A program made the position numbers and the translations under genes. From Blattamonas nauphoetae (taxonomy: Eukaryota; Preaxostyla; Oxymonadida), in NCBI GenBank assembly GCA_033064195.1, contig JARBJD010000008.1:558001-622000 (forward strand): 64,000 bases of DNA, given 5' to 3'. The notes beneath the pieces were generated by a model. That model saw nothing but the letters and a program-made list of their open reading frames with translations, was not told the origin of the DNA and did no database searches. Of the stretch, positions 971-18,504 are shown one piece after another. Within the stretch, counting starts at the first letter, position 1; each line of letters starts with the position of its first letter.

Positions 971-2917
971 ATGCTCTCTGGCGATGACAAACCAGTCTAC
1001 CCAATGATGTTGAATGATCTCCTCGCCCAAGCGACTGGTTTGTCTCGCCTTGTTTTCGTTCACTCTCGTTGATCATGCTCACAGAATCTGATTGGGCGCT
1101 CGCAACAATACCTGATGTTGAGTACATCAAACCCTTTGAGCAATATTGTGAACAGATCCAACCATGCGATGTTCCAGTGTGATTCTTGTTTCGTCATCTT
1201 TCTCAGACTTCTCTCCCAAAATTGTTGACTCTCATTGGTTTGACACCGTTCTGTGTTCATCGCGACCTTTTTCACCATTTATTCGATCAGGGAAAACGTC
1301 AGAAAGAGAATGTCTTCGAGTCTGTGAATCGTCGATCCCATCGTTCCTTCTCTCGTGGATACTCTCGCTTCCAAATGAAGAGATGATCAAAGAAGTATGT
1401 TTTCCTCCAAATTTCCATCATTTTGTTTCAGATCGGAGAGTGTCTATTGCTGTGGACTTCCACTCTTCGATCGTCTTCCACCTTCCTCACCCGCCACAAA
1501 ACCAAATTCGTTGGCTTTATCGATCATTTTCAGAGTGTCAAGGCACATTTTCCACATTTGAAGGTTCTCTCCCAGCTATGTTTCTCACCACATCCCGAAG
1601 TGTCGAAAGTGACTCTCACCGCGCTCTGCAATCGAAGTCAGTCTGATTCAGATATATGCGGCTTTCTCCAATCGGACGGAGTGCCTTCTATTCTGACTGA
1701 AAGTTCATCGGAGGTCGAGCCATTTGTCAAACAGCTGTGTGGAAGGATGGTCGAACACGTCTCACAATTGAAGTCGTTCTCCGCAGAATCTTCACCGTCG
1801 GATGAAACCATCTCTGGGCTCTCCAACTCATTTCATGAAGAATCATCACTTCTCACTGGAGACACTGTTCTGGAAGTGCTTTGTGGTGAACTCTCTCTCG
1901 TCGACAGTGTGTTTGGAAAGAAGGCCACCAACACTCACTCTGTGTGTCATTGTCTCTCATAATCTTGTCCAGATTCCACTCAACAAAGATATAGTTACTG
2001 TTCTCAAATCCACCATCACAGCATGTCTTGATCTTCTTGACCAACAAAAAACTGAATCGAATTGTCCGCCTTCTGATCGAACTACCCTGTTGATCGAAAT
2101 ACTCGACAGCTCATGGAACTGTGTTATCAACCATCTCTATCGCTCTTGCCAATCCATCTTCTCCGAAGTTCCTCCGCTGTGCTTTCTTTTGGTACGAACT
2201 TACAACCGTCCTTCGCCAACGCATTCCTCTCGTCTTGGAATGATCATCAACTTCAGCGTCAATCAGGTTGATATGGTTCATGGGATGCTGGAAGAGAATC
2301 TTATTCAACGAGTGATCGACACATCCAAACCGACGACAGTTCCGACTACGCATCGGACATTCCATCTGGATCTCATCGAATCTGTGGCAAAGCTTATCGG
2401 AACACAGAATCGGTGGTTGTATCTCGAAAAAGATTGGAAACCACTCCGACCGCTTCAGTTTGAACGTGGGTTGAAACCGGCCAAGCTATATCTACAATTC
2501 ATTCTTCAGTGGGAAGAGATCATATCAACTTGGGTCTCAAGTGACAACAAACTGCCAACCATTGTCACTGAGCTGTTGAAGGAGACATTGACACTGGAGC
2601 GAGATCTGTTCTATTCTGGAATTATTGTGGAGACAGGAAGAGAGAAGTGGGAAGTTGGGTGGTTGGTGGAGAGGACAAAGGAGAAGGATTTGGGGGAGAG
2701 ACTGAAGTTAATCAGAGCAGACGATATGGAAATGAAACAGGGAAAGAAGAAAAAAGAGAACGAAAGATGGAAGAAGCGAGTGGAGAGACGACGAGAAGCA
2801 GGACACGAAGATGCGATGGAAGGATGGCTGACGCGAAGGGACAATCAAATCCAGTTGGAGGTCGAAGAGTATGTTGAAAGAATGCGTAAGGAGTATGGGA
2901 TGAACAACACAATGTGA
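971..2917 (+). CDS. six-exon helical-repeat (armadillo-like) family protein, copy A
   Basis: The exons are 971-1037, 1085-1176, 1207-1237, 1291-1394, 1432-1941 and 1973-2917, giving 582 codons. All introns are GT-AG and short (47, 30, 53, 37 and 31 nt). Every junction is repeated at the same place and phase in the paralogue at 15322-17245, which is strong evidence for the model. The protein is mostly alpha-helical, with Leu/Val-rich repeats in the middle that look like armadillo/HEAT folds. It has no signal peptide or membrane segment, and its basic, charged C-terminus contains a conserved Gly-His-Glu-Asp-Ala stretch. I recognise it only as a large lineage-specific family. The tandem genes after 57.8 kb have a similar helical architecture and may be distant relatives. 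A transposon lies 24 bp after the stop. Confidence 0.8.
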
Positions 2918-2941
2918 GAAGGAGAGAAGGACGATCGTATA

Positions 2942-4789
2942 CTGCCCGACACGACGACATGATCCAGCTGTAAAACGGTTGTATTTTTCTGAATAAAGAG
3001 ACAATATGTTTTAATTTTCTATCAATGATAGTTGAGAGAGTTAGACACAGTTTGAGAAAAAATGAGAAGACAAAAAATTCTGAGTGACGTGAAAACTGTA
3101 AAACAAAAAAAATGATGGACATGCTCCTCGCGACATGACACGTGATTCACTTCATCCTGCTCGATCCCTCTAACTTTTAATTGTTTTAACTTTACGAGAG
3201 AAACACTCGAGTAGTCAATCACTGAATGAGAGAACGATGTTTTCATTACTGAGGTTACATGGCTCAGGGAATTTGGAACTTTTTTTGAAACCTGTTGATA
3301 CTCAGTTTGTTATTGGATTGATTGATGTACTCTTTCCACCATCACATTCTATTACGAGACTGAGTCACGTCATCTACAAACTACAGTTCAATATCGTTGT
3401 CAGCACGCTCTGCAAAATTTCATCTTTTTGAAACGATCCTTTTTGTCGGGTTGACAGTCGAACGCAGATTCCAACGCGAGATCAACATCTGATGGCCAGT
3501 CCTTCTCGCGGAAGATTCTCTACACCTCGACGACTATTATGGTCTAGTAGTGACATGACGCGAATCGAAGCTGGAAGAAAGGTTCGTAATTTTTCTTGTC
3601 TTCTTGCAGGAAAGTTCCAAATTCCCTGAATTGTGTAACCTCAGTACTTTCTTGTGGGATCGAGTTCTCACCTCGCACGATTTTTGGACGAATGAAGTCC
3701 CTTGTGACATAAATCGCATAATTTTCGAAAAGAATTGATACGAGCGTTCACGAAATGTGTTTGATGAGGTTAAAGTCGGTAAAGAGTGTTTGAAGGTATT
3801 TCTAACCGATATTGACCTGTTTGATTCTTTGAAGTTTCATGGTTTTTCTTGTTTCATCAAGCTTTATCACCGAGAAGGAGCCGTGTGTGGTGGAGAGGGT
3901 CTATCTTTGCCTTGGCTCGTCACTTGATGGAAGCATCAGTGGAAGTTTCAAACGCATTCTGTTTTCACTGAAGAAAACTTTGGCAGAAAAACGAATCCCA
4001 ACACATACCCAAATCCTGAGAGATAAGAGGTGACATGTGACCTTGATTCTTGGCGTGGTGTGTTTTTTCTATCTGTCATTGTCGAATGTCTCTTGTCCTC
4101 TCCCCCTCGAATTTGTTGAATCCTCAAACATCCAAAGCTCATCAATTCAAACCTTTCCAACGAGTGTTCTTTGTGAAAGTGAAACGTTTTTGAAAATGAT
4201 TGGAATGTGATGGAGGAACTCTGGGAGATGAACTGAGACAACTTGGATTCATTTTTGAGGATGCATTGGAAGGAAAGGCTTGACTTGCTGCTTTTCAGAT
4301 CTCTCTTCAGTTGACCGACTGTGCTGTTGGACTCGTTTGAGATTTCGATCTGAACATTTTTCAAGATCTTGACGGTGTCAGGTTGTGGTAGGCCTTTTCA
4401 TTTCGCGATTCGCTGTCAATACTCGACGATCAGCGTGTTGGTGTCCTTGGAGACGGTATTGACAGAGTCTCCCAGAATGCGAGCTGCCTCGTTTCTCCCC
4501 TTTCTTCTTCGTCTAGCCATCTTGATCTGTCTCTGTGTGGACATTGAAAATCATTGTTCCATTTGTGAGTGCAATCCGAGGTGAATCACGTGTCATGTCG
4601 TCAGACGCATGTCCCACTACAGTTACATTTCACGTCATTCTCTCTTATTTTTCACTGTTGTTCTTCCAAAAAAATCACGGAGATGTATAACTCAAGGTAG
4701 TTGTTGGGAGTGAAAAAGGAACTCTCAACTCTCTCTTGTTCCGTGAAAAAACAAAAATTACAGCCGGATCTTGTCGTCGTGTCGGGCAG
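2942..4789 (-). mobile_element. TA-flanked inverted-repeat transposon, diverged copy in reverse orientation
   Basis: The ends are CTGCCCGACACGACGAC and its complement, flanked on both sides by TATA (TA or TATA target duplication). The interior is the reverse complement of the elements at 33703-35153 and 50193-51641 but clearly diverged, so this is the older copy. It encodes no transposase and is therefore non-autonomous. It sits in the 3' flank of the gene at 971-2917. The paralogous flank at 15240-15320 lacks it and aligns on both sides of it, giving an empty site. The TA target suggests mobilisation by a Tc1/mariner/pogo-type transposase. It is longer than its relatives because another element is nested at 3249-3644. 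Confidence 0.85.
3249..3644. mobile_element. 396-bp MITE nested in the larger element
   Basis: The ends are CTGAGGTTAC and GTAACCTCAG, extending imperfectly to about 35 bp of inverted repeat, with TA on each side. The two related larger elements (near 34,850 and 51,340) show the uninterrupted sequence with a single TA at this point. The boundaries and the TA duplication are therefore read directly from an empty-site comparison. There is no ORF. The TA target and MITE size fit a Tc1/mariner-class non-autonomous element, with ends different from those of its host element. Confidence 0.85.
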
Positions 4790-5464
4790 TATAATTATGA
4801 CAACTTCACTTTTCATGTCACAGTTTTATCATTTTGACTCCTTTTTGAACAACCACTCCCAGTTCGGACAATTATCCGTCATCAAAAAGCTCACGAGAAA
4901 ATACTGAAAGGTCTAAGAGTGAATCAAGGTTGATGAAAGATGCTCAAAAAGCTCGCGAGAAAATGAGGATCGAGTGGAAGAATGAGATGAGATGTGTTCA
5001 AAGAGAGATGACGAGATGAAAAGCGAGATAAGAAGTGAGGGCAGTGTGCAAGCAATGAAGAATGGGTGACCCCGATGACCAGCAAGAAGCACCTCGCCTT
5101 CGAAGTGCTGCCGACACAACTGCAACAGACACGAGGACAGAAAGGAGAGAATGTGCTATACGAGATGACAGGAGCGTCCCACGAAGTAGAGATCTGGGAA
5201 AGTGGTTGTCAAACGAAGATTGGGTGATGAGAAGTCTGAACCACTTCGTAGCACGAAGAATAGAAGTGGCTGGTGTTTGACGTGGGATAGGGAAGAAGCG
5301 AGTTTCTGTGGTCGGTCTGGTGATTAAACGAAGATGAACTGAAGATTCCAGTGTTGTGAGAGTGTGGCATGAGACGAAAGACGAGATGAAATGGAGTGTC
5401 TGTGGAAAGGAACAATCAGATGGGAAAAACGAGATGAGAGTGATGATGTGATGTGTTTGACGAG
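4790..5464. other. intergenic, no gene seen
   Basis: The first ~70 bp align with the 3' flank of the paralogous gene at 15322 and mark the end of the duplicated block. The rest is AG-rich with recurring GATGAGA-like words and has no convincing ORF on either strand. It leads into the 3' end of the minus-strand receptor-like gene. Confidence 0.5.
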
Positions 5465-8400
5465 TTATTGTTTCGATTCTGCTTTGTTGTTTTGCGGGTC
5501 GAGTGTTGGGTCAGACGCAGACGGAGAGAAGTACTTCACAAGTCGATCGTTCACTTTCTGCAACGTCGGCCTCTTCTTCGCCTCAATCTGCATGCAATCC
5601 TCAATCAACTCCCGCAGCCCCTCGTTCTCCACTGCATTCATCTTCAGACCAACTCCCAACACAATCTGACGGTGCGCGTTCAGCCCGTCGTGTTCATGAT
5701 ACGGCACTTGTCCAGTCTCAATTTCCCACAAGAGGAGGCCAAGCCGAAAAACCAGACCAGCTTCTTTGTTCACTTGAGGGTTCTGTTGAGACTCGTTTTT
5801 CTCCTCAGTCTCTTCGGGTGGATTCCACCGCTGAGTCTCCCCTCCATCTGGATTGTGTATTTTGTCTCCAAGCGATTGATTCTTCGTTTGCTCATCCATC
5901 AGTTTGAAATGAACTTCAGCGTCATCCCCCAAGATCACCCAGTGTGGGTTCAGATTCTGTAAAATTGACGCCGTTGGCATCTTCTGCATCACACGTAGTA
6001 GTTGTGTAGTGAGTGCCTTCTCGATCTTCTCCGCCGCAATCGGTTTCGGATTCTGCGCTTCGTGGAGTCGGTGGAAGAGTGTCTCTTTCGATGCCACGAA
6101 CTTCGTTTCCGCGACGTCTTTCTGGTCGAGGTCCTTCAAACAAATCACTTCCACAACCTCTTCGCTTGTTTTCGAAGGGACACCAAATGTGGACACAATG
6201 TTCGTTGTATTTGCTTTGTGTTGATTCACTGCAACAATGTTGTTCGTGTCACCCATCCCATCGTCCACAACATCCACTTTCGCCACGAACTCCTCACTCT
6301 CTTGCTCAACCAGTTCAGTCTTATCGTCCTGCTTCTGTTGATGTTTTTGTCGCCACACCAGAAAGATGATGAGGAGGATGACGAGAAGCAGAACAACACT
6401 GAGGACAAGTGGAAGGACCCACGAGAGTGCCTTTCCGAGTGGTGTTTGGCTGAACTTCGGTTTCGTTGGCTCTGGCTCGGGTGGTTCAGGATCGTCGATG
6501 TGCGCAGTGGAGAAGGTGAACCAGTCTGTCGTTCGCAGATTCTGACCAAACATCAGTCGGCATCGCAGTTCCAGTTTCTGATCCAATGCAGCGATCTCTT
6601 CTGGTTCGATGACGAGAGTCACCGCAGTCTCAGACGATGAGTCGCTCAGTTCGAATTCAACTGACTTGCCATCCGCGTTGCTTTCCGATTCGTGTTCAAA
6701 CACTTCCAGGAACAAGCCACATGGAATCAGTCGAGATCCAACGAGAGTCACTTTGAATTGTTGAGTGTCTGTGTCCACCACAGTCTTCGATTGTTCCTTG
6801 TCCAGCTGAGGAACAAACAACGGGGAGGCTGGTTGTGACGCATCTCCGTCCATACCACAGGATTCCATCGACGCCCACAATGACGATCCTTGGAAGCCAT
6901 CTCCACCATTCAGACTGCCAATCGTGATCGTCCCCTCGTCCGAGCAGTGGATGTTGCGACGAGATGATGGATAACGTGATGACGATGCAGAGTTGGAAAC
7001 AAATGTCGATGTTTGGATTTCGAGTGATCCATTCCTCATGTTGATCGCTCCTTGAGAGAGGCGGAACAGTTGTGTGTTCCGTATTTGTGTGTCACAGTTG
7101 GCGAGTTGGAGAGCTCCCGACGACCAGCTGCATACTCCATCCGAATCTTCGTTCATCATCATTCCAGTGGCTGGTCCAGCAAACAGTCCATCTCGAAACA
7201 CCAGCTCCGAGTTCGTTCCATGAATCAGAACAAACGACGGCGAGGATGACAGGACATGTACATCCACGTTCCTCAACTCGAGAAAGGCTGACTCCACAAC
7301 AATTATCCCCAACTGTTCCTCGCTCAGATCATGTGAGGCGACATGCAGTTTCGGTTCAGTTGAGCTATCGTTTGTCACCATTGCATGCATTCCTTCCGAA
7401 ACGACGATCGGCGAATCGAGTGTGGTGGAGTCCAAAATGAGGAGTGTCGGTCGATCAAACCCAATCTCTTTCACAATTCGCCACACTTCGTCAATTGTCT
7501 TGCATCTGTCTCCAGCATCTCCACAAAAGTCACCCACCCCTCCTGAAACATCCACATGGAACACTGGTTGTGCCTGTTTGGTGTCTGTTGTGAAGGTGTT
7601 CTTGACAAGTTTAACTCGTTGAGAGGATTCCCCGATTTCCTCCATCTTTGAGAATGTGTATTCTGTGTTGTATTGCAGGCCAATCCCCCAACCAATGTGA
7701 ATCGGTGCTGTTGTTCTGCAAGTGAGGGTCGACGATGAGCATTCTACTTCCACTTCTGTGTTCTGAGTCATCGTCAGTTTGTATTTTGAATTGTGGATCG
7801 AACCCTCAACTGAGAGAACGAGATCCAATCCAGTTTTCACTTCGTTCGAGAATGTGGTGTCGATGTCAATCACACAAGCTTTCAAAGGAACATCGAAAGA
7901 AAGGCCAGAGATCAAGTGGAAGTTTGTTCCGTTGGACACCGATTCAATCGAATATGTCTCACCAAAAACCAACGACGTGGCTGACGCTGTCTCAGCAACG
8001 TGGAAACGAGCCGAGAACGACGTGTCTGACAAGCGAGTCGCCGAGATGAAGACCGAACCGTCCTTTCCAGTGATCGTAACAGAAGTGATTGTCGCTGGAA
8101 GCGCCCGCGCTTGGAATGTCACTTCAACCTCATTCTGAGTATCGGTCAGTGCTGCTGAAATGATCTTTTCGACAACTGTCGGTTCAGGCGGTGTTAGGAA
8201 AGAGATGGACAATGGAATGGAGAACGAGAAATCAGGAACCGAGAGACTCTCCACAATGTATGTCTTCCCATATTCCAGCGTCCCACTCTTTTGGTACACT
8301 TCAACCCATCCCGATCCGCTTGTCGTTGATTCAATCGACACCGGAATTGAGATCCTGCTCGTCTCTCCCGATTCCTTCACCACCAGATTGAAGCTTCCAC

Positions 8401-8732
8401 ACGCCATTCGAAGCCCTGTCAGTGACAATGTCAGGCTGTTTGCATCTCCTTCTTTCAATGTCGCTGACACGTCTGTCAGTGTCGGTCCTTCAGGTGTTGT
8501 GAAAGTGTTGGCTTGGAGAACGATATGATTTCCATCTGCATCAACAACAGAAGACAGAGTACAACTCGTGTTGAAATCCATCTTTCCATGTCCTCCCCCA
8601 TTCATCCATTCCGACGTTCCACTTCCACTCGAGAATGACACAGAGAATTCACTTCCGACTGAAGGCGTCGCTGTGAATGTCCCCGACGACGGAAGACCTG
8701 TTCCTGTGAACGTCATCTGGAAGTGCGTGCAA
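5465..8732 (-). CDS. receptor-like surface protein, C-terminal half (Ig-like repeats, TM, pseudokinase)
   Basis: This is the downstream half of one gene whose upstream half is 11857-15137. The first in-frame ATG here (8716) is internal to the family repeat pattern and is not thought to be the real start. The order is Ig-like beta repeats, a Cys-containing beta-helix-like stretch, a basic-flanked transmembrane helix (around 6335-6425) and a cytoplasmic kinase-like C-lobe. The lobe keeps the helix-F pattern (GLLLWEIETG) and the Arg-Pro-Thr of subdomain XI. It lacks the HRD aspartate and DFG, and APE has become PPE, so phosphotransfer is unlikely. The gene is split by the insertion at 8738-11856. 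Removing it with one TTCGA copy leaves an open frame of 2182 residues with 11857-15137. Confidence 0.8.
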
Positions 8733-8859
8733 TTCGATCACTCTGCAGTGATCTGATTCAGCCGAGCTACGAAGAGTGAGATCAATCTCTGAAGTGAGTC
8801 GAACACAACAATGGGTTAGATCTCTGAATTTTAATTTGCATTTTAATTTGAACACAACA

Positions 8860-9828
8860 ATGACTCAAGAAGAGCAGTTTGGTGAAATCTTTAAGGCGAG
8901 ATTGCAGGAGCTTCGCAATTTGGCTGTCCAGGTGTTTACAAGCGGGCTTTCACCCAACTCCGAAGACGCTCAAAAATTTCAACAGATGGCGTTGCCACCC
9001 TACCTCTATCCCATTGCCGGTGCAATTTTCCATCTTTTACGACTATTTCTGGCGACAATTGATTGTGACTTCGGACTGGATAGCCAGGACTGGGAGGGAC
9101 CGATCGGAGGTGCCCTGGTCCCAAATGTAGTCCAGCAGCGAATTTTGACCCCTCAACCGTTTCGTCAAAGGCAGAGTGATGATGTACATACGCCGAATAT
9201 CGATAATGACGGATCGATGACACCCTGGATCTTCCGGACAACACCGCCTCCAGAACAAGTCGTCTTCCAGCCTGCACCACTTCAACCGCAGATGGGCATC
9301 GCTCCAACTCAAGCTGGACTTGGAGCAGACCTCGAATATATGCAAGCCAGGGTAGAAGATGTTGCAAGGGAGCTCCCGATCTTCAACTGGGTTGCTCAGG
9401 CTCTTGCGACTCTGAAGGAGGTCCTGAAATTGGCCGAAGGGCTTCAGCTGAATATGGATATCCTTAGCAAATATGTTACAGAACATACACGGGATAGTGA
9501 TGGTTTATTGGTAGGCCTTAAACATGAGGCCTTCCACGCGGTCAGGTTAAGTATTGGCCTGTTCATAGCTGTCCGACAAGGCATGCCCTCTGTGCAAGCA
9601 TTGGCGTTGATGGGGCTGAAAGCAGCGGAGCTGGTACAACAGGTGGAACTGGCTCGCAAGGTCAATCTCGGTCTTGTCGAGCCGTCAATTGGGGAGGATG
9701 AGCTGGAACAGGAGAACGTTCGACGGCAGGAAGAGCTCCTCCAACAGGAGATGGAGCAAACGATTCGGGCAAGGGAGACTGCAGAGGCAGTCAGAGATGG
9801 ACCACAATTTCGGTCTTTTCAATGGTGA
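8860..9828 (+). CDS. unrecognised 322-residue helical protein carried by the insertion
   Basis: The ATG at 8860 follows an A/T-rich leader, and the frame is open to 9828 without introns. The protein has a helical N-terminal third, a Gln/Pro-rich linker (roughly residues 95-145) and a long helical second half. It ends in an acidic Glu/Gln-rich coiled-coil-like segment. There is no signal peptide, zinc-binding cluster or recognisable DDE, polymerase or protease motif. Codon use looks less A/T- and TC-rich than in neighbouring genes, so a foreign origin is possible. It lies just inside the left inverted repeat of the insertion, where an element-encoded protein would be expected. I do not recognise the family and assign no function. 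Confidence 0.6.
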   Translation: MTQEEQFGEIFKARLQELRNLAVQVFTSGLSPNSEDAQKFQQMALPPYLYPIAGAIFHLLRLFLATIDCDFGLDSQDWEGPIGGALVPNVVQQRILTPQPFRQRQSDDVHTPNIDNDGSMTPWIFRTTPPPEQVVFQPAPLQPQMGIAPTQAGLGADLEYMQARVEDVARELPIFNWVAQALATLKEVLKLAEGLQLNMDILSKYVTEHTRDSDGLLVGLKHEAFHAVRLSIGLFIAVRQGMPSVQALALMGLKAAELVQQVELARKVNLGLVEPSIGEDELEQENVRRQEELLQQEMEQTIRARETAEAVRDGPQFRSFQW

Positions 9829-9999
9829 ATATGTTTTCAGACAGGAGGATGAAGGGCGGAGCCAGCAGTAATACACAGGAAAGCAGATCAAACACCTCAA
9901 TTGCTTCTTAAGTTGGCGTCATCGCCCCAACGATCACATCACAAACCACATCAGACTATCACCAGTCACACATCATAACACAACCATCATCTTTTGGCA

Positions 10000-10680
10000 T
10001 CAACGCCACAACATCATCTCAACAGTCAATGCTGGGATGCACTTCACAACATACTGCCCTCTGGCCTCCGAATGGCATCAACGCCGTGGATGGCAGAGGA
10101 GGAAGGTGCGGCCCTCGTTGGAGAGGGATATTGGCCGATGCAATTCAGAATGCCCGTGTTGTAGTAGATATCAGGGGAGAGATAGAAAAGAGGAGTCATC
10201 GGACATCTCTAGGATGTCGTCAACCACAATAGACACAACAAAGTCAAACCTCATATCACAAACCACAATTTATGGCATCAACGCCACATCTACCATTCAA
10301 AACAAGTGGTTGGATACATTTCATATCATCCTGCCCTCTGACCTTCAAAGGCATCAACGCCGCAGATGGCAGAGGAGAATGTCGCTTCCCTCGTCATAGA
10401 GGGATAATGGTCAACGCAATTGGTACAGAGTATATTGAAGGAGATATCAGGGAATGGAGTTCAGTCTCCATCTTCATTCATTGCGAAAGGCTGTGTCAGC
10501 CACATCATACAAAGTTTTTGCTATGAGTCGACGATGTTGGAGGAACATGGGTCAGCAGGGTTCTTCTCGATCACCCTCCGCCAACTGAAAGGACAGTTTT
10601 TTCCGACATTTCACAACATTGCGTCCTCTCGCCTCCGATTGGCATCGACGTCACAGGTGGCAGAGGAGGATGACAGGAAA
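10000..10680. repeat. degenerate tandem repeat, about 280-bp period, three units
   Basis: A conserved core containing GGCATCAACGCC followed by GGCAGAGGAG occurs at about 10058-10104, 10331-10377 and 10624-10669, spaced roughly 273-293 bp apart. Extra copies of TGGCATCAACGCCACA-like words lie at ~9993 and ~10267. The stretch has no convincing long ORF and separates the two coding pieces of the insertion. It may be subterminal or structural repeat DNA of the element. Confidence 0.6.
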
Positions 10681-11581
10681 GGAACTAGTGACAGGTGAAA
10701 CTAACGATGTTTCGCTGTCAGTTGGTTCGTCAGTGAAGCACATTGTTTCGATGAAGTTCAGAGTTTTAGACGATGCGTGGATGGGGTCAGCATTGCTGTA
10801 TCCTTGGTCAGATGCTGAACTGTCGTATGGAGTGGAATACAATGCGACTGAGTTCTCTCAAACAGTCTCGTCGACGACAGCCACTCACTTCTCCGAAGCC
10901 AATCTCGAAAAGATCATGGCAGAACCGCCTCGTCTGACCACTCCGAATCCGTTTGTTGAATATTCGGATCAGGACAAGAAAGGAGTTGTGTCGCTGTCTG
11001 GGATTGGTCTCTCTGAGGAGTACACAGTGAGGATGACTCAGTCGAAAGGATTGTCTGGGACTGAGACGATGAGTGTGTCATTCGATTCGTCTGGGAATGG
11101 AAGAATCAATGGAGTTCTTTATGGCACAGCTGGAGTTGGTGAACTTGGACTGAAATATGTCACGATTTATGAAGTGAGTGGGATGATGAATTCTTCATCG
11201 AAACCAGTTCATTTTGAGTCTGACCTTGTGTTTGAAACGATTGCTGAACTATCGCGTCTAACCAAGGTGAATCAACCCACTGTTGGATTTGTTGGACATC
11301 GCATGGTTACTGGAGAGTATTCTGTGTCACTGGAGAATATGGCAGACGATGACATCATCGACGGGAACGGACTGGAGACTATCCTTCGTGGATGCAGCAT
11401 GATCCTCGGAATATGGAGTGCCGATATTGGTTTCGGCGTAGAGCAAAGTTGCTCTTGGACTTTCGGGTTTATTTTGACGGAGACGAAGAGGGCAGTGCAC
11501 GATCCAGTTGGAGAACAGGAAAACGGCGAAGAGTCCATCCTCATCAACGAGGTGATGACTCCCAAGACTCACTCTTCGTAG
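10676..11581 (+). pseudogene. captured fragment of a receptor-type Ig-like-repeat gene
   Basis: An open plus-strand stretch encodes several beta-rich repeats of the type found in the surrounding receptor gene. These are strand patterns ending in Val-Xaa-Phe and repeats around an 'EYSVSLENM'-like segment. It lacks a signal peptide, a transmembrane helix and a kinase-like domain. It runs directly into the right-hand inverted repeat, where it stops. It is in the opposite orientation to the host receptor gene and differs in sequence, so it is not a local duplication of the flanks. The likely reading is a host gene fragment carried inside a transposon. An older resident gene invaded by repeats is the alternative. 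Confidence 0.55.
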
Positions 11582-11856
11582 CTCGGCTGAATCAGATCAC
11601 TGCAGAGTGATCGAAGATTTAGCAGAGCGAAGAAGAGTGACCACCCTCCCACCCGACAAGGAATGGTTTCAGTTGATGTGGAGTGTCTTCGCTCTGCCCT
11701 TTGGTTTTTGGTTTTGTTATTCTTTTCGACGTGATTAGACCTTGATTCGGCATGTACTCTTCTCCCTTTTCTATATGAGTCTCCCAAGGGTCTAACCCAT
11801 TGTTGTGTTCGACTCACTTCAGAGATTGATCTCACTCTTCTTCGCTCTGCTAAATC

Positions 11857-14800
11857 TTCGAAGAGAGTGATGGCGTGATCAATGTCACAACAGGAGGACT
11901 TGGAACCATGAAACTGATCGATGGATTCACAATGAATGATGCTGTCTCGTTCTTCACTGATTTCACCGTGTACGTCTGTCCAAATTCCAAGTTTGATGTT
12001 GATTCTGAGAGACCAGCTGCAAACACAATTGTCACTTCTGTTTCTGTCACAAATTCAATCGTCTGTGTTGATGTGATGACCACACCATTTCTTTCCACCG
12101 TCACCAGCATCGGCTTGTTCGACAGAGCAACTCCCATCAGCGGGATTGTAACTTCCGTCCTCATCTTGTGCAACGATAGCGTTCCCACGCTTTCAATGCG
12201 TGAAGCTAATGGAACCATCAGGATGACATCATCACTGATGAGGAAATCGGAACCACTTGACACTGATTCGATCGAATACAACTCACCAAAAACCAACGAA
12301 GTGGCTGACGCTGTCTCTGCCACGGTGAAAAGTGCGGAGAATGACGTGACTGACAAGCGAGTGGCAGAGATGAAGGCCGAAGCATCTTTTCCTGTGATGG
12401 TGACGGAAGTGATTGTCGCTGGAAGCGCGCGGGCTTGGAATGTCACCTCAACCCCATTCTGGGCATCGTTCAGTGCAGCTGAAACAACCTTTTCAACACG
12501 TGCTGGTTCTGATGGAACAACAATTTGGAGATTGGGGGTGAGTGTGAGCTGAGGATTTCTGGAACACGTGAAGTCCGTGATTGTGTATGTCATCCCAAAT
12601 CCCAACTGGACAGTTGTGCTGTCATCCATCGAGTAAAGTACAGCTGTAGCCTCTCCATTCACTCCATCAGCATCGAATTCGGCAGTCAAAGTGGACGTGG
12701 TTGACCCATCAGTGACTGTGAGCTTATACGGGTTGGTCATTAGTTTCTCGCCAACCAGCTTGATTGTGATTGTGTCTTTCTTCGAGTCCGAAAAGGAGAT
12801 CGATCCAACGCTCTTCAATATTGGAGAAGTCGGAGTTGTGAAGAAGAGGCGAGGAGGGTCGAGGATGAGAGTCTCTCCTGTGCTCACTTCGATCACTTTC
12901 TCAATCTCATATGTCGTTTCGAAAGCCAGAATCGCTTTTTCACCCTGCAGCTTCAGTCCTATTTTGGTTGAGAAGATATTGCCTCCAGATGGGTTGCTCA
13001 CAAAATCAACAAACATCCAGAAATCTGAGTTCCCTTTCACTGACGCTTTATACGATCCTGTCGCAAGGGTTCGCGCTTTCAGAGAGAAGAAGGCGTCGAA
13101 CTCGGAGTTTCCACCTTCACACATCGCTCGAACAATTCGCGGTGGATTTGGTGTTGTGAGGATTGCTCCGTTTGTGTCGACGATTGATTCTTTCCATCCA
13201 AAAGTGACCAGTGAGTAGTTCGCTTCGTATTGCAGAACTTCCCATTCTCCAAAAGAGAGGGTGGATTCTGCCGATGTTGAATCTGGAGTGAAGTCGAACG
13301 AGATCATTCTGCTCAGTGGAGGAGGAGACTCGTCGTTCGGCATTTCGTAGTTGTCCGTGTTGTCGACCAGCACCAGAACTGTTCCGCTGATCGGTTTATC
13401 AACTGTCAGCGTCGCTTTTACCGTCCTGGTGTCCGAGCTCACGATGCTGCCCACTGACGAGACCGCCAAAGGAGTCGAAGCAGTGACAAAATCTGGAGGG
13501 ATTGGTGGAGTGTGATCAAAACAAACGAAGATTGGATCTTGATCAGTATCGCAGTCTGTGAATGGCGGTGAATCAGAAGATTGCATGCTGTTTCGGATGG
13601 CAACATCTTGTGCTCGATGAGGTGCGTAGGCGAGGTTCTTTCTGAAACGGAGTGAAGTGAACCTAAACCCTGCGTTCTGCACATACACCGCTCCTCCAAA
13701 GCCAAATGAAGTGTTCTGGCTGCATTTCTGGAAAAGACAGTTCGAAACTGTGACTTCACCAGGCTGACAGTCGAGCAGCACTAATCCTCCTCCATTGATT
13801 TTTGCGTAGAGATCATAAAACACACAATCCGTGATCGATCCTTGTTGACAGTTGGTGAACAGTATGGCGCCGGCGTGAAATCCTGATTGTCCAGACACGA
13901 ATGAACAGTGCGACACTGTAGCAGGAACCGATGATGTTGAATATGGATGAAAACAGATGCTTCCTCCCTCACTCTTAGCAGAGCAACGAAGGAAGGAGCA
14001 TTTGGTGACACTAAGGGTGGCCGTTGCCTGGTTCGAATCAATCGCGCTTCCTCTCTCAGCGTGGATGTCACGGAAGGTGCACGTATCGAACAGAGTGCAC
14101 TCCGGAGAGAGTTTGTGGTCAAATTGAGTTGTGAAGTGTTGGAGATACACGGTGGGAGGGCCTTCTGTCGGGTCGGGGTCGGTTTCGCATTTGGAGAACG
14201 ACGAGTTCATACAACAAACAGAAGTCCCAAAATTCATGTCCAACGACCCTGTTCCATAAAGATGGTTCGTGCTTTCCGATATCGACGAACAAATCACTCG
14301 TTGAGACACCAGAGGGAAGCGGAGGGTGTCGGGGATGAAGCGATGACGACTTGTCACGTTTGTCATCACCGATCTTGTCAGACAAACAGATGCTGTCAAC
14401 AGCGATTGCTGGATGTTGTCTTTGTTGAACCCAAAATCAAAAAGGGGGCCAGTTGCGAGAGGCAACGCTGTGTTCGAAAAAGAGAGTCCACTCCCAACAA
14501 TCGAGAGAATTCCCCTTGTTTGATCTGTCTCCCTTCCCAAAAGGCTGTCCTCCGACGATTCAGTCACCAGTGACTTGTGACTGCGTGGCATCGTTCCAAA
14601 AAGTGGAAGAGATGTCGCGTATTTCCAGTTCACTTGGGTCTCGATAACTATCAAAATCGAGTTGTCTGTGGGTGTCCACGTTGATATAAACGGACTTGTG
14701 CTTGAAGCAGCTCCAATTTTGCAGTTCGACACCGACAACGATGATTGTCTGATCGTCGCGACTGAACTGTGGTCTCTATTGCATATCAAACGAAGCGACG

Positions 14801-15137
14801 ACAGTGCAACTGTGCTGTTTGATACAATCAGCATCGGTGATGGGTTAGAGTTCGAAAGAGCTGGTTCGTTTCCTGTTCGGCTCGAAACGATCGATGTTGA
14901 TTGACCCCCAATAATCGATATGTTCAGTGATCTCATAACATATTCCAACACATGGTATTGTCCATGGAGATGGATTGGTTTGTTTCTGCTCTCGATGTTT
15001 GAGCTTCGTATTGGTGTTAATTCATCGAGAATCGGTTTCAAGTTCAATAAACTTGCATCGGCGATCGCCTCAGCAGGACACGTCGAGAGGAAGATGGAAA
15101 CGATGAGGGGGATCGCAAGAATGATTGGTGGATGCAT
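11857..15137 (-). CDS. receptor-like surface protein, N-terminal half (signal peptide, beta-helix, Ig-like repeats)
   Basis: The chosen start is the ATG at 15137, which opens a strong signal peptide (Met-His-Pro-Pro, then a hydrophobic run ending Cys-Pro-Ala-Glu-Ala). An in-frame ATG at 15179 is the alternative. About 600 residues of Ser/Thr/Cys-rich right-handed beta-helix repeats follow, with recurrent CxF and GG motifs. Several Ig-like repeats come next until the frame enters the insertion and stops at 11850. One Ig-like repeat here (near 12220-12500) is about 80% like one in the other half (near 7880-8160). With 5465-8732 it forms a type-I membrane protein of 2182 residues. As it stands, only a truncated, unanchored product could be made. 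Confidence 0.8.
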
Positions 15138-15321
15138 TTGGAGGAAGATTGGACTTCCTACTAGAATTGATCGGCTCATTATCCGTACGGAGGTTTTCGA
15201 GACATCCTCGTTCGATTTGTGACAGTACTCTGACACGTCAGATGTTCAGTGGCTGTTCAAAAAACGAGTCAAAATGATCATACTGTGATGTGAAAAATGA
15301 ATTTCACTCTCTCCTTCTTTC

Positions 15322-17245
15322 TCACTGTGTGTTGTTCATCCCACTCGCCTCACTCACACTTTCAACATACTCTTCGACCTCCAACGGTATTTGATTGTCC
15401 CTTCGCGTCAGCCATCCTTCCATTGCATCTTCATGTCCAGCTACGCGAAGTCTCTTCACTCGCTTCTTCCATCTCGACTTCTCGTTCTTCTCAATTTTCA
15501 CATCGTATCTTCTGATCCACTCCAGTCTCCATCCCAAACTGTTCTCCCTTGTCATCTCAACCAACCACCCCACTTCCCACTCCTCTCTTCCTGTCTCCAC
15601 AATCATTCCATTTTCGAACAGTTCCCTCTCGAGCAGCAATGTCGCTTTCAGCAGCTCAGAGACAATGGTTGGCACATTGTACGGTCTGCTGTCATCTTTC
15701 GAAAAGAACTCGTCTCGCTGTAAAATGAACTTCAGATACTGTTTTGCTGGTTTCAGTGCACGTTCAAACTGAAGCTGTTGGAGAGGTTTCCTTTCTGTTT
15801 CGGGAAAAGAGAACCGATTCGGTGTTCCGATCAGAGTTGCCACAGATTGGATGAGATCCAGATGGAACGTCCGATGTGTAGTCGGAACTGTCGTCAGCTT
15901 GGATGTGTCGATCACTCGTTGAATAAGGTTCTCTTTCAGCATGAGAGGGATCAAGTTAGGCAGATAGATAGCGAGATGGATGATCATTCCTAAACGAGAG
16001 GAGTGTGTTGGCGAAGGACGATTGTAAGTTCGTTCCAAAAGAAAGCACAGCGACGGATCATCTGAGAAGGCCGATTTGTCATCTCGATGGTCAGATGGGA
16101 GAGAGCGGTAGAGATGGTTGAGTACACAGTTCCATGAGCTGTCGAGAATTGTGACCAACAGGACAGTTCGATCAGAACGTGGACAATTCGAAGCAGTTTT
16201 TTGTTGGTCTAGCTGATCGAGGCAGACAATGATGATCGATTTAAGAAGCGTAACAACATCGCTGTTGAGCGGAATCTGGACAAGATGAGACGAGATAAAG
16301 ACACACAAATTGGGTCGTATTGGCTTTGAATCCAAACAGACTGTCGATGAGAGAAAGTTCCTCACAAAGAACTGCCAACATAGCGTTTCCGCTGAAAAGT
16401 GGTGATTTGTCGGGAAGTGTGGCGGAGAGTGGAGAGATGGTTTGATCCGACGGTGAGGATTCTTCGGAAAGTGACTTCATTTGTGAAATGTGTTCGACCA
16501 TCCTTCCACACAGCTGTTTTGCGAATGGCACAACCTCCGATGAACCATTTGTCAAAACAGAAGACACTCCGTCCGATTTGAGGAAGGCGCGGATTTCTGA
16601 ATCAGACCGACTTCGTGTGCAAAGCGCTTTGAGAGTCAACTTCGACACTTCGGGATGCGGGGTGAAACACAGCTGGGAGAGATCCTTCAAATGTGGAAGA
16701 TGTGCCTTGACACTCTGAAAATGATCGATAAAGCCAACGAATTTGGGTTTGTGGTGGGCGAGGAAGGTGGAAGACGATCGAAGTGTGGAAGTCCACAATA
16801 ACAGACAATCTCCGACCTGAAACAAAATGAGGGAAATTTGGAGAAAGTCAAACATTCTTGATCATGGCTTCATCCGGAAGCGAGATTATCCACTCGAGGA
16901 AGAACGATGGGAACGACGATTCGCAAATGCGAAGACATTCACATTCTGACGATTTTCCTGATCGAATAAATGGTGAAAAAGGTCAAGATGATCACAGAAC
17001 AGTGTCAGACCAATCAGAGTCAGCAATTTCGGAAGAGCTAACTGAGAAATGATGACGAAACAAGAATCACACTGGAACATCACATGGTTGAGCCTTTTCA
17101 CAATATTCCTCAAGAGGTTTGATGTACTCCACATCGTGAATTGTTGAGAGTGCCCAATCAGACTCTGTGAACAAGATCAACGAGAATGAACACAATCAAT
17201 GCAAGACAAACCAGTCACAAGAACATGGAGATCTTTGAGCATCAT
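15322..17245 (-). CDS. six-exon helical-repeat (armadillo-like) family protein, copy B
   Basis: The exons in coding order are 17245-17212, 17164-17073, 17041-17011, 16957-16854, 16816-16307 and 16275-15322, giving 574 codons. Intron positions and phases are the same as in the copy at 971-2917. Four of the five introns differ by at most 1 nt in length (53, 37 and 31 nt identical in three). The start is the first of two Met codons that align with internal Met residues of copy A, whose 5' extension is not open here. The 3' part has small insertions relative to A, including an Asp-rich loop. The stop lies under 200 bp from the start of the minus-strand receptor gene. Function is unknown; a helical scaffold is an inference. 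Confidence 0.8.
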
Positions 17246-17628
17246 TGGACGGAGTGTTCTGCAGTCGCCAGCTGTCTGGCGTAGGATTGTTTCAAGATAG
17301 TTCTACAAAACATTTCAGAGTGATATCGAGAGAAATTCTTCATACTTTTTGTTGCGCGTTTGCGTTGTCAGGTTGAGGAGATGAAGGGGAATTGTCGCCA
17401 AGCATGGTATTCTGGATCGAGGAATACATCTGCAGATGCAAAATTATGAAAGACAGAATATGAAAGAAGGTAGAAGGAACTTAAAGGAGCTGAGATGAGA
17501 CAATCACTCTTCTTCGCCTTGATATCACTATCTCAATCTGTGACGGAAAGAACGGAAGAGAAACGAGTGATAACGGGAGCAGCATTGGGTGGTTTGTTAA
17601 CACAAATCAGGGGAGAAGGGAGAATGTG
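17246..17628. other. upstream region of copy B, no firm gene
   Basis: The first ~100 bp match the promoter side of the paralogue at 900-970. Beyond that there is a possible 42-residue plus-strand ORF starting at 17494 with a hydrophobic N-terminus, which ends just before the minisatellite. It is too short to call without expression data. Confidence 0.35.
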
Positions 17629-18178
17629 ATCGTGCGGAGAAGCGAGCAGGCGATCGAGCGGAGAAGCGAGCAGGCGATCGTGCGGAGAAGCGAGCAGGCG
17701 ATCGAGCGGAGAAGCGAGCAGGCGATCGAGCGGAGAAGCGAGCAGGCGATCGAGCGGAGAAGCGAGCAGGCGATCGAGCGGAGAAGCGAGCAGGCGATCG
17801 AGCGGAGAAGCGAGCAGGCGATCGAGCGGAGAAGCGAGCAGGCGATCGAGCGGAGAAGCGAGCAGGCGATCAAGCGGAGAAGCGAGCAGGCGATCGAGCG
17901 GAGAAGCGAGCAGGCGATCGAGCGGAGAAGCGAGCAGGCGATCGAGCGGAGAAGCGAGCAGGCGATCGTGCGGAGAAGCGAGCAGGCGATCGAGCGGAGA
18001 AGCGAGCAGGCGATCGTGCGGAGAAGCGAGCAGGCGATCGAGCGGAGAAGCGAGCAGGCGATCGTGCGGAGAAGCGAGCAGGCGATCGTGCGGAGAAGCG
18101 AGCAGACGATCGAGCGGAGAAGCGAGCAGGCGATCGAGCGGAGAAGCGAGCAGGCGATCGTGCGGAGAAGCGAGCAGA
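17629..18178. repeat. 24-bp minisatellite, about 23 copies
   Basis: The unit GCGGAGAAGCGAGCAGGCGATC plus GA or GT repeats with almost no divergence. Variation is mainly A/T at one position (gagcgg versus gtgcgg), with single other changes. The period is a multiple of three without stops, so it reads as an 8-residue repeat on the plus strand (RRSEQAIE) and as another on the minus strand (SLLRSIAC). The minus-strand frame has an ATG at 18200, while the plus frame has only GTG. Homogeneity implies recent expansion. Coding status cannot be decided. Confidence 0.95.
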
Positions 18179-18504
18179 TGACAGGAACAGCACTGTTCAT
18201 CTCAGAGCAGGGTGGTTGGGCAGAGGTGAAAAGGTGGATTGAGGAAGAGGTAGTCAGTTGAAGGAGTGTTCGATTTTCGGTCTCGCTGTAAACAATTTAA
18301 ATCCATGTTTTCCTTTGAAGGTGATTCCGGACATGTTCTGTCTACCCTGAACACTCGCTTTTCTTCTGAGCATTGGTCAGGATCGATTCAGCAAGAGATA
18401 CACACTCGATTCTTGCGAAGTTCTTTCACTGAGAGATATTTGATAGCTTCCTGCACTTGACTCGGACTTGTGTATTTTGGAACTTTCCTTGAGAGCTGTT
18501 CGTT

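What the first reader, a model, noticed from the sequence alone, without database searches (positions are those of the whole stretch)
8738..11856. Possible new gene-carrying transposon with an unknown 322-residue ORF and a captured receptor fragment
The insert has inverted repeats at its ends, a single unrecognised helical ORF with different codon flavour, degenerate ~280-bp repeats, and a receptor-type fragment in the opposite direction to its host gene. No known transposase is visible, so the ORF may be a novel mobility or accessory protein. This is the best candidate in the window for an undescribed system.
Basis: inference. Interest (0 to 1): 0.75.

Follow-up and report, generated by a model that had tools for sequence, protein, structure and literature searches.

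The report
Crippled DIRS retrotransposon carrying host gene
The insert is a recently copied, non-self-sufficient member of a known class of jumping genes (DIRS1-like retrotransposons) that has lost its enzymes, kept its first gene and picked up a piece of a host surface-receptor gene; the kind is known, the combination looks unusual.

Summary
Window 8736-11861 is a real mobile element: nine copies carry the same cargo in this 88.3-Mb genome, six of the others differing from the window at 0-7 aligned positions. It is not a new transposon type. Its ends have the DIRS1-like signature: inverted terminal repeats plus an internal region (11568-11640) that is the exact reverse complement of the joined right and left ends, i.e. 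a circle-junction template. The 322-residue ORF belongs to a genome-wide family (124 matches). Relatives at 62-66% identity are the first gene of larger DIRS1-type elements; L013 shows the layout: ORF1, RT-RNaseH-methyltransferase ORF, overlapping tyrosine-recombinase ORF. The window copy kept ORF1 and both ends, lost the enzymes, holds a degenerate repeat block, and carries 675 bp captured from a host receptor gene (91% DNA identity). Paralogous empty sites show that only GA was duplicated. It most likely moves with RT and recombinase from autonomous relatives (inferred). A gag-retaining, gene-carrying non-autonomous DIRS, or DIRS in an oxymonad, was not found in the papers searched. Boldest open reading: a natural RNAi cassette against the parent receptor genes.

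The parts
8736..11861 (+). whole non-autonomous DIRS1-like element (3126 bp, GA at both edges; net insertion 3124 bp)
   Evidence: shared ends in aligned copies; gapless empty-site paralogues
8736..8754 (+). left outermost 19 bp, complementary only to the internal region (left-extension-like); contains GATCACT-CTGC-AGTGATC stem-loop
8755..8820 (+). left inverted terminal repeat (66 nt, 94% complementary to 11791-11856)
8860..9828 (+). Gag-like ORF1 of DIRS1 type, 322 aa; lacks the basic C-terminal tail of autonomous relatives
   Evidence: gene order in relatives
9858..10670 (+). degenerate ~280-bp tandem repeats (3 units here; 2 in L022, L024, L017 as read from overlapping BLAST pieces); the related stretch of L009 weakly matches the start of the pol ORF upstream of RT
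10675..11349 (+). captured host receptor-gene fragment (91% DNA identity over 612 bp to C601, L048; 89% to C634, L049), inside ORF 10619-11581
11350..11524 (+). 175 bp of unknown origin, found only in the nine cargo copies
   Evidence: 9 of 9 matches
11568..11612 (-). left internal complementary region (45 nt, exact reverse complement of 8736-8780)
   Evidence: relatives
11611..11640 (-). right internal complementary region (30 nt, exact reverse complement of 11832-11861); overlaps the left one by 2 bp, the GA circle junction
   Evidence: relatives; hairpin
11791..11861 (-). right inverted terminal repeat and right end
11862..15236 (-). 5' part of the interrupted host gene (beta-helix domain)
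5465..8735 (-). 3' part of the interrupted host gene (receptor-type protein with C-terminal kinase-like domain)
   Evidence: joined frame open

Best explanation
A non-autonomous DIRS1-like tyrosine-recombinase retrotransposon. SHOWN: it has ITRs, an internal complementary region that spells out the circle junction, and an ORF1 homologous to that of larger DIRS1-like elements in the same genome; RT, RNase H, methyltransferase and recombinase were not found in it; the gap is filled by a repeat block and a fragment of a host receptor gene; it inserted at a GA dinucleotide with no other duplication or loss; near-identical copies prove recent movement. INFERRED: the RNA is copied by RT supplied by autonomous relatives, the internal complementary region templates a circle, and the relatives' tyrosine recombinase integrates the circle at GATGA-like sites by a crossover at GA(T). 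INFERRED: the fragment was captured once by template switching or recombination before the burst and now rides as passive cargo.
For: Copies and ends: 40 end matches; seven copies, the window included, alike at 99.6-100% of aligned columns (gaps not counted) and an eighth at 97%. ICR: 45/45 and 30/30 complementary in the window, the same arrangement in L011, L014, L050, L009, L018. ORF1 family: 124 matches. Relatives: RVT_1 above its cut-off (L011 E 3.5e-23); RNase H, Dam and integrase SAM hits below theirs; L013 has ORF1 1741-3000, RT-RH-MT ORF 2859-5102 and an overlapping ORF 2693-6061 that aligns with the L050 recombinase ORF over its C-terminus. Near seven distant ORF1 members a Phage_integrase match lies about 2-2.5 kb downstream, same strand (C157 above cut-off; C508, C510, C317, C656, C778:385178, C556:294465 just below). 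Integration: of four lengths tested only removal of 3124 bp leaves the host frame open over 300 codons; three C155 paralogue sites match the joined flanks over 242 bp at 93-94% without a gap (four C155 sites at protein level); keeping GA once gives the longest crossing frame in 12 of 14 loci (L050 with its edge corrected); target GA+T(10/13)G(10/13)A(13/13). Non-autonomy: of 37 of the 124 ORF1 matches compared with 40 of the 79 RH/YR matches, 22 have RH/YR within 9 kb downstream; none of the nine cargo copies has.
Against: Termini start with GAT rather than the NTT of 23 of 28 described DIRS1-like elements, and the junction is 2 bp (or 3 with mismatches) instead of the usual 3 (PMC3266345; two of the 28 also have 2 bp). 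ORF1 has no convincing Pfam match and no hit in the large protein search, so 'Gag-like' rests on gene order and homology within this genome; no fold match was convincing. The recombinase domain of the nearest relatives is only weakly recognised by Pfam (all hits below cut-off; L013's whole ORF gave none at E <= 0.05) and its catalytic residues were not tested. Several relatives have broken frames (L010, L012, L014). The best-matching autonomous family is only ~71% identical in DNA, so its action on this element is not demonstrated. Keeping GA once was not best in L011 and L013.
Confidence: 0.93

Rival explanations
1. A new DNA transposon whose 322-aa ORF is itself the transposase or mobility protein.
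For: Inverted terminal repeats, no recognisable enzyme in the window copy, ORF without Pfam match.
Against: The ORF is ORF1 of elements that carry RT, RNase H, MT and a tyrosine recombinase; two copies with the ORF frame broken after 89 codons (L016, L024) are otherwise 99.6-100% identical to the close copies, so the ORF is not needed in cis, or these breaks are assembly errors; the internal complementary region is not expected for a DNA transposon.
Confidence: 0.02
2. The captured fragment is functional: the element is a natural silencing cassette. ITR promoters transcribe the receptor fragment from both sides, the dsRNA is diced, and siRNAs damp the parent receptor genes (and possibly the element).
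For: In Dictyostelium both DIRS-1 ITRs are promoters, and a gene fragment between them is enough to knock down the endogenous gene (PMC4482531, abstract and passages). This genome has Piwi/Argonaute matches and one 2111-aa frame with two RNase III domains, Dicer-like. Cargo shares 88 and 117 of 655 21-mers with two parent loci, longest exact run 57 nt.
Against: No small-RNA or expression data; promoter activity of these ITRs untested; RdRP search unanswered; no selection on the fragment seen between copies (dN/dS 0.8-1.0); any transposon with host sequence could be diced by accident.
Confidence: 0.08
3. The fragment encodes a used protein (about 300 aa, ATG at 10670 to 11581), so the element spreads a new chimeric receptor-like gene.
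For: The frame is open in 9 of 9 cargo copies; against the host parents dN/dS is 0.41-0.44.
Against: Most copies are too young for stops to accumulate (0-4 changes in the fragment); between the window and the older copies (L022, L017) dN/dS is 0.91-0.97, and 0.78 between those two; the low value against the parents can come from the host branch (0.30 between the two parents). No signal or anchor sequence was tested; no promoter evidence.
Confidence: 0.04

Closest known systems
DIRS1-like retrotransposons (Piednoel et al. 2011, PMC3266345; section 10 and passages seen)
   Same: ITR + ICR + circle junction; ORF1, RT-RH-MT ORF overlapped by a YR ORF in the relatives; ICR lengths 45 and 30 here (52-36 in AcasDIRS1); a left extension as in fungi and amoebozoa
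   Different: Window copy lacks all enzymes and, at 3126 bp, is shorter than the 28 listed elements (3974 bp or more in the text, 3793 for DIRS1-2 in the table); GA(T) termini instead of NTT; carries host DNA
Maize Bs1 and plant TR-GAG elements (LTR class; Bs1 seen only as reference titles in PMC13317346, details recalled; TR-GAG seen in search listing)
   Same: Non-autonomous retroelements; Bs1 carries captured host gene fragments, TR-GAG keeps gag
   Different: LTR elements; here DIRS ends and, in the relatives, a tyrosine recombinase
SIRE, the short derivative of the YR element VIPER in trypanosomes (PMC6681497, one passage)
   Same: Non-autonomous derivative of a tyrosine-recombinase retroelement keeping both ends
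   Different: As described in the passage, SIRE is two end pieces and ~30 bp, with no captured gene
DIRS-1 knock-down cassette in Dictyostelium (PMC4482531, abstract and passages)
   Same: Gene fragment between DIRS ITRs
   Different: Man-made and shown to silence; here natural and untested
LAP2alpha domain of TMPO/ZNF451 (PMC4495291, passages)
   Same: Derived from ORF1 of a DIRS1-like element, as the window ORF is ORF1

Membership tests
Non-autonomous derivative of a DIRS1-like family | Inverted terminal repeats | tested here: met
   66 nt, 94%
Non-autonomous derivative of a DIRS1-like family | Two internal complementary regions overlapping at a short circle junction | tested here: met
   11568-11612 and 11611-11640, exact reverse complements of left and right ends, 2-bp overlap
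Non-autonomous derivative of a DIRS1-like family | No usual target-site duplication | tested here: met
   only GA repeated; three empty-site paralogues gapless
Non-autonomous derivative of a DIRS1-like family | Ends and ORF1 shared with larger, enzyme-bearing DIRS1-like elements in the same genome | tested here: met
   L010-L014; some of these have broken frames
Non-autonomous derivative of a DIRS1-like family | Mobilised in trans by RT and YR of relatives | not testable with these tools
   inferred from missing enzymes and recent copies
Autonomous DIRS1-like element | RT/RNase H/methyltransferase ORF | tested here: not met
   none found in the window copy; present in relatives such as L013 and L050
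Autonomous DIRS1-like element | Tyrosine recombinase ORF | tested here: not met
   none found in the window copy; in relatives recognised by alignment and sub-cut-off Pfam hits
DIRS1-like (typical termini) | NTT trinucleotide ends / 3-bp circle junction | tested here: not met
   GAT...GA here; typical in 23 of 28 described elements, not in all
Retroviral-type capsid (CA) fold of ORF1 | capsid fold | tested here: inconclusive
   all-helical models with mean pLDDT 64 and 66; no row stands out

The most novel reading that the evidence does not exclude
A retrotransposon that has become a natural RNAi cassette: by capturing 675 bp of a receptor gene between its (presumably bidirectional) DIRS ITR promoters and copying itself to nine sites, it supplies dsRNA that tunes or silences a family of surface receptors in a gut flagellate with Dicer- and Argonaute-like genes, the natural counterpart of the engineered Dictyostelium DIRS-1 knock-down cassette.
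Probability: 0.08. Interest if true: 0.78.

Novelty: new variant of a known kind. Interest (0 to 1): 0.45.

Why it matters
It places DIRS1-like retrotransposons, with a large and diverse ORF1 family, in a genome that fits the oxymonad Blattamonas nauphoetae, for which I found no report of them in the papers searched, and shows a DIRS element that shed its enzymes but kept ORF1 and took up a host gene piece: gene capture of the Bs1/TR-GAG sort in a class that integrates with a tyrosine recombinase. The empty-site paralogues fix the integration footprint to two bases, which makes the DIRS circle model testable. The cargo makes a specific test possible of whether DIRS ITRs plus a gene fragment silence host genes in nature.

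Tried and rejected
New DNA transposon: rejected by the DIRS layout of relatives. A 5-bp duplication: looked for by eye at the ends of 13 copies, absent. Nested MITE at 11611-11861: considered because of its own 30-bp inverted repeat; rejected, since the same arrangement is in relatives at ~71% DNA identity, as the ICR. Host-gene duplication in place: rejected, since the cargo shares no 21-mer with the window's own host gene and matches C601/C634 genes instead.

Dropped before counts: L010, L015, L017, L019 and L025 were left out of the 13-site target count (cut off, truncated or unresolved ends); L050 was used (14 loci) with its left edge one base off, corrected (GA kept once 713 codons, against 443, 436 and 282), but not; L017 was left out of the identity table (8 of 9 cargo copies used); L009, L016 and L024 were left out of the ORF1 dN/dS. 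One search used 37 of the 124 matches and 40 of the 79. In one search the three rows are one genomic site seen in three overlapping loci; one search lists the three distinct sites.

Full report
WHAT IS THERE. The window is G000:C778:558001-622000 of an 88,311,006-bp, 837-contig genome. The assembly size fits the oxymonad Blattamonas nauphoetae (88,537,989 bp in 879 contigs, PMC10703272, passages); this identification is an inference and was not tested with a marker gene. The finding lies inside one long minus-strand host gene (receptor-type, beta-helix at one end, kinase-like domain at the other), which it splits into 11862-15236 and 5465-8735.

ENDS. Three nested inverted-repeat pairs were found. 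Comparing copies fixes the element at 8736-11861. The reverse complement of 11568-11640 reads as the right end followed directly by the left end, sharing GA: 45 of 45 and 30 of 30 bases are complementary, with a 2-bp overlap. This is the 'internal complementary region' of DIRS1-like elements, which overlaps at the circular junction (PMC3266345, section 10 and passages). As single-stranded DNA it folds into a strong hairpin (-21.3 kcal/mol, z -6.7, 0 of 200 shuffles as good). The same arrangement is present in L011, L014, L050, L009 and L018. The outer 19 bp on the left match only the ICR, like the 'left extension' that PMC3266345 reports from fungi and amoebozoa.

COPIES. A 98-bp end probe gave 40 scored matches of 55 candidates. 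Nine copies, the window included, carry the cargo. Of the eight compared over their length, six differ from the window at 0-7 aligned positions (gaps not counted) and L022 at 72. The element therefore moved very recently.

THE ORF. The 322-aa protein has 124 matches in this genome, from 100% down to about 20% identity, no Pfam match of its own, and none in the large protein search. At 62-66% identity it is the first gene of larger elements (L011-L014, 4336-4679 bp; L010 is cut off by the locus edge). L013 has ORF1 (1741-3000), an RT-RNaseH-methyltransferase ORF (2859-5102) and a 1122-aa ORF (2693-6061) that overlaps pol and ends in the recombinase, the DIRS1 'long ORF overlap'. The others are partly broken: L010 ORF1 in two frames, L012 recombinase match shortened, L014 with stops. 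L011 gives RVT_1 E 3.5e-23, above cut-off; RNase H, Dam and integrase SAM-domain hits are below their cut-offs. The recombinase call rests on weak Pfam hits: the whole L013 ORF gave none at E <= 0.05; its C-terminal part and those of L050 and L051 hit integrase SAM and Phage_integrase models, best E 2.8e-5, all below cut-off. It also rests on alignment between L013 and L050 and on Phage_integrase matches about 2-2.5 kb downstream of seven distant ORF1 members (one above cut-off, C157). Catalytic residues were not tested. L050, 41-42% identical in ORF1, has the same gene order. L050 pol found 107 proteins; three carry a Dam domain (P0006, P0025, P0065), no source name says DIRS, and many weaker ones are Ty3/gypsy-type, as expected for DIRS RT. 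So the ORF is DIRS ORF1, by convention Gag-like; whether it forms a capsid is unknown (models with pLDDT 64 and 66, pTM 0.39 and 0.37). The window protein lacks the basic C-terminal tail of its relatives.

WHAT REPLACED THE ENZYMES. Against L010-L014 the window element aligns from 8731-8738 to 9780-9792 and again from 11525-11558 to at most 11866. Between these lie: (i) a block of ~280-bp degenerate repeats, 3 units here and 2 in L022, L024 and L017, found outside the cargo copies only in L009, where it weakly matches the start of the pol ORF (36%, E 2.8e-7), suggesting decayed pol-linker sequence; (ii) 10675-11349, 91% identical over 612 bp to a host gene in C601 (2652-aa open frame) and 89% to one in C634, with one 27-bp deletion against both; (iii) 175 bp of unknown origin. 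The cargo shares no 21-mer with the host gene that the element interrupts.

INTEGRATION. If 3124 bp are removed, leaving one GA, the host frame is open over 300 codons; with 3123, 3125 or 3126 bp it is not. Three C155 paralogue sites match the joined flanks over 242 bp at 93-94% without a gap and so carry GA once; four C155 sites cover the joined protein query with no net gap. In 12 of 14 loci the crossing frame is longest when GA is kept once (L050 corrected); L011 and L013 are exceptions, and several short frames could be chance. The target is GA followed by T (10/13), G (10/13), A (13/13). This suits a tyrosine recombinase crossing over at GA(T) between a circle and a GATGA-like site; the recombinase step itself is inferred.

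SELECTION. ORF1 of the window against L011 has dN/dS about 0.09, the history of the autonomous lineage. Between the window and the older cargo copies L022 and L017 it is 1.2-1.4 for ORF1 and 0.91-0.97 for the fragment ORF, on 19-33 changes; between L022 and L017 1.4 and 0.78. The fragment against its two best host parents gives 0.41-0.44, the parents against each other 0.30, so the low value against parents may be the host's. Two copies (L016, L024) have ORF1 broken after 89 codons (real or assembly error). I therefore see no sign that ORF1 or cargo is selected within the cargo copies.

NON-AUTONOMY. Of 37 of the 124 ORF1 matches checked against 40 of the 79 RH/YR matches, 22 have RH/YR within 9 kb downstream on the same strand; none of the nine cargo copies has. 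Movement in trans is the simplest reading. The exact helper is unknown; the L010-L013 family is itself recent (ORF1 99.5% or more alike to L011) and shares the left-end stem-loop.

SILENCING READING. In Dictyostelium both DIRS-1 ITRs are promoters, and a gene fragment between them silences its endogenous gene (PMC4482531, abstract and passages). Here nature has placed a receptor fragment between DIRS ITRs nine times. The genome has Piwi matches (7 of 8 above cut-off) and a 2111-aa frame with two RNase III domains. The cargo shares 88 and 117 of 655 21-mers with two parent loci, longest exact run 57 nt. RdRP could not be tested. This is a hypothesis, not a result.

NOVELTY. No paper in the library holds 'non-autonomous DIRS', 'nonautonomous DIRS', 'DIRS1 derivative' or 'DIRS MITE'; none holds three of DIRS, Metamonada, oxymonad, retrotransposon; the Blattamonas genome paper has no word starting 'transpos' in its main text and the Monocercomonoides paper no 'DIRS'. 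Subscription papers, preprints, supplements and Repbase were not searched. Non-autonomous YR retroelements are known (SIRE of VIPER). Verdict: a new variant of a known kind.

Noticed in passing
L009:1674-2174 (C113): An old DIRS relative without detected RT-domain or YR match carries a Tc1/mariner-like transposase ORF (motif recognised from memory, not Pfam-tested), a transposon nested in a retrotransposon.
   Followed up: no
L016:1488-2002 (C125): About 515 bp inserted in the left terminus of an otherwise identical copy, with an 8-bp repeat (8778-8785 in window terms): possibly a small hAT-like or MITE insertion.
   Followed up: no
L017 (C822:161000-169000): A cargo copy that lacks inner parts of both terminal repeats while the outermost left bases remain.
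   Followed up: no
L050:1-1306 and 5848-6682 (C767): A relative with all DIRS ORFs also interrupts a receptor-type gene with a kinase-like end (by eye, not Pfam-tested); L024's flank has a beta-helix domain. These genes are very numerous here, so no preference is shown.
   Followed up: partly
C257:219884-220801, C613:16122-17063, C496:18486-19406: ORF1 copies without a listed RH/YR match nearby: possible further gag-only DIRS elements.
   Followed up: partly
window 17607-18261: Low-complexity tandem repeat open on both strands (ACSLLRSI / RRSEQAIE units).
   Followed up: no
window 1802-2917 and 15322-16365: Two related ORFs of 371 and 347 aa on opposite strands (shared stretches such as GHEDAMEGWLTRRDNQI, by eye), a duplicated gene flanking the region.
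   Followed up: no
G000:C42:88567-89691: A 2111-aa open frame with two RNase III domains (Dicer-like), besides 8 Piwi-domain matches in the genome: RNAi machinery in a mitochondrion-lacking lineage, if the species inference holds.
   Followed up: partly
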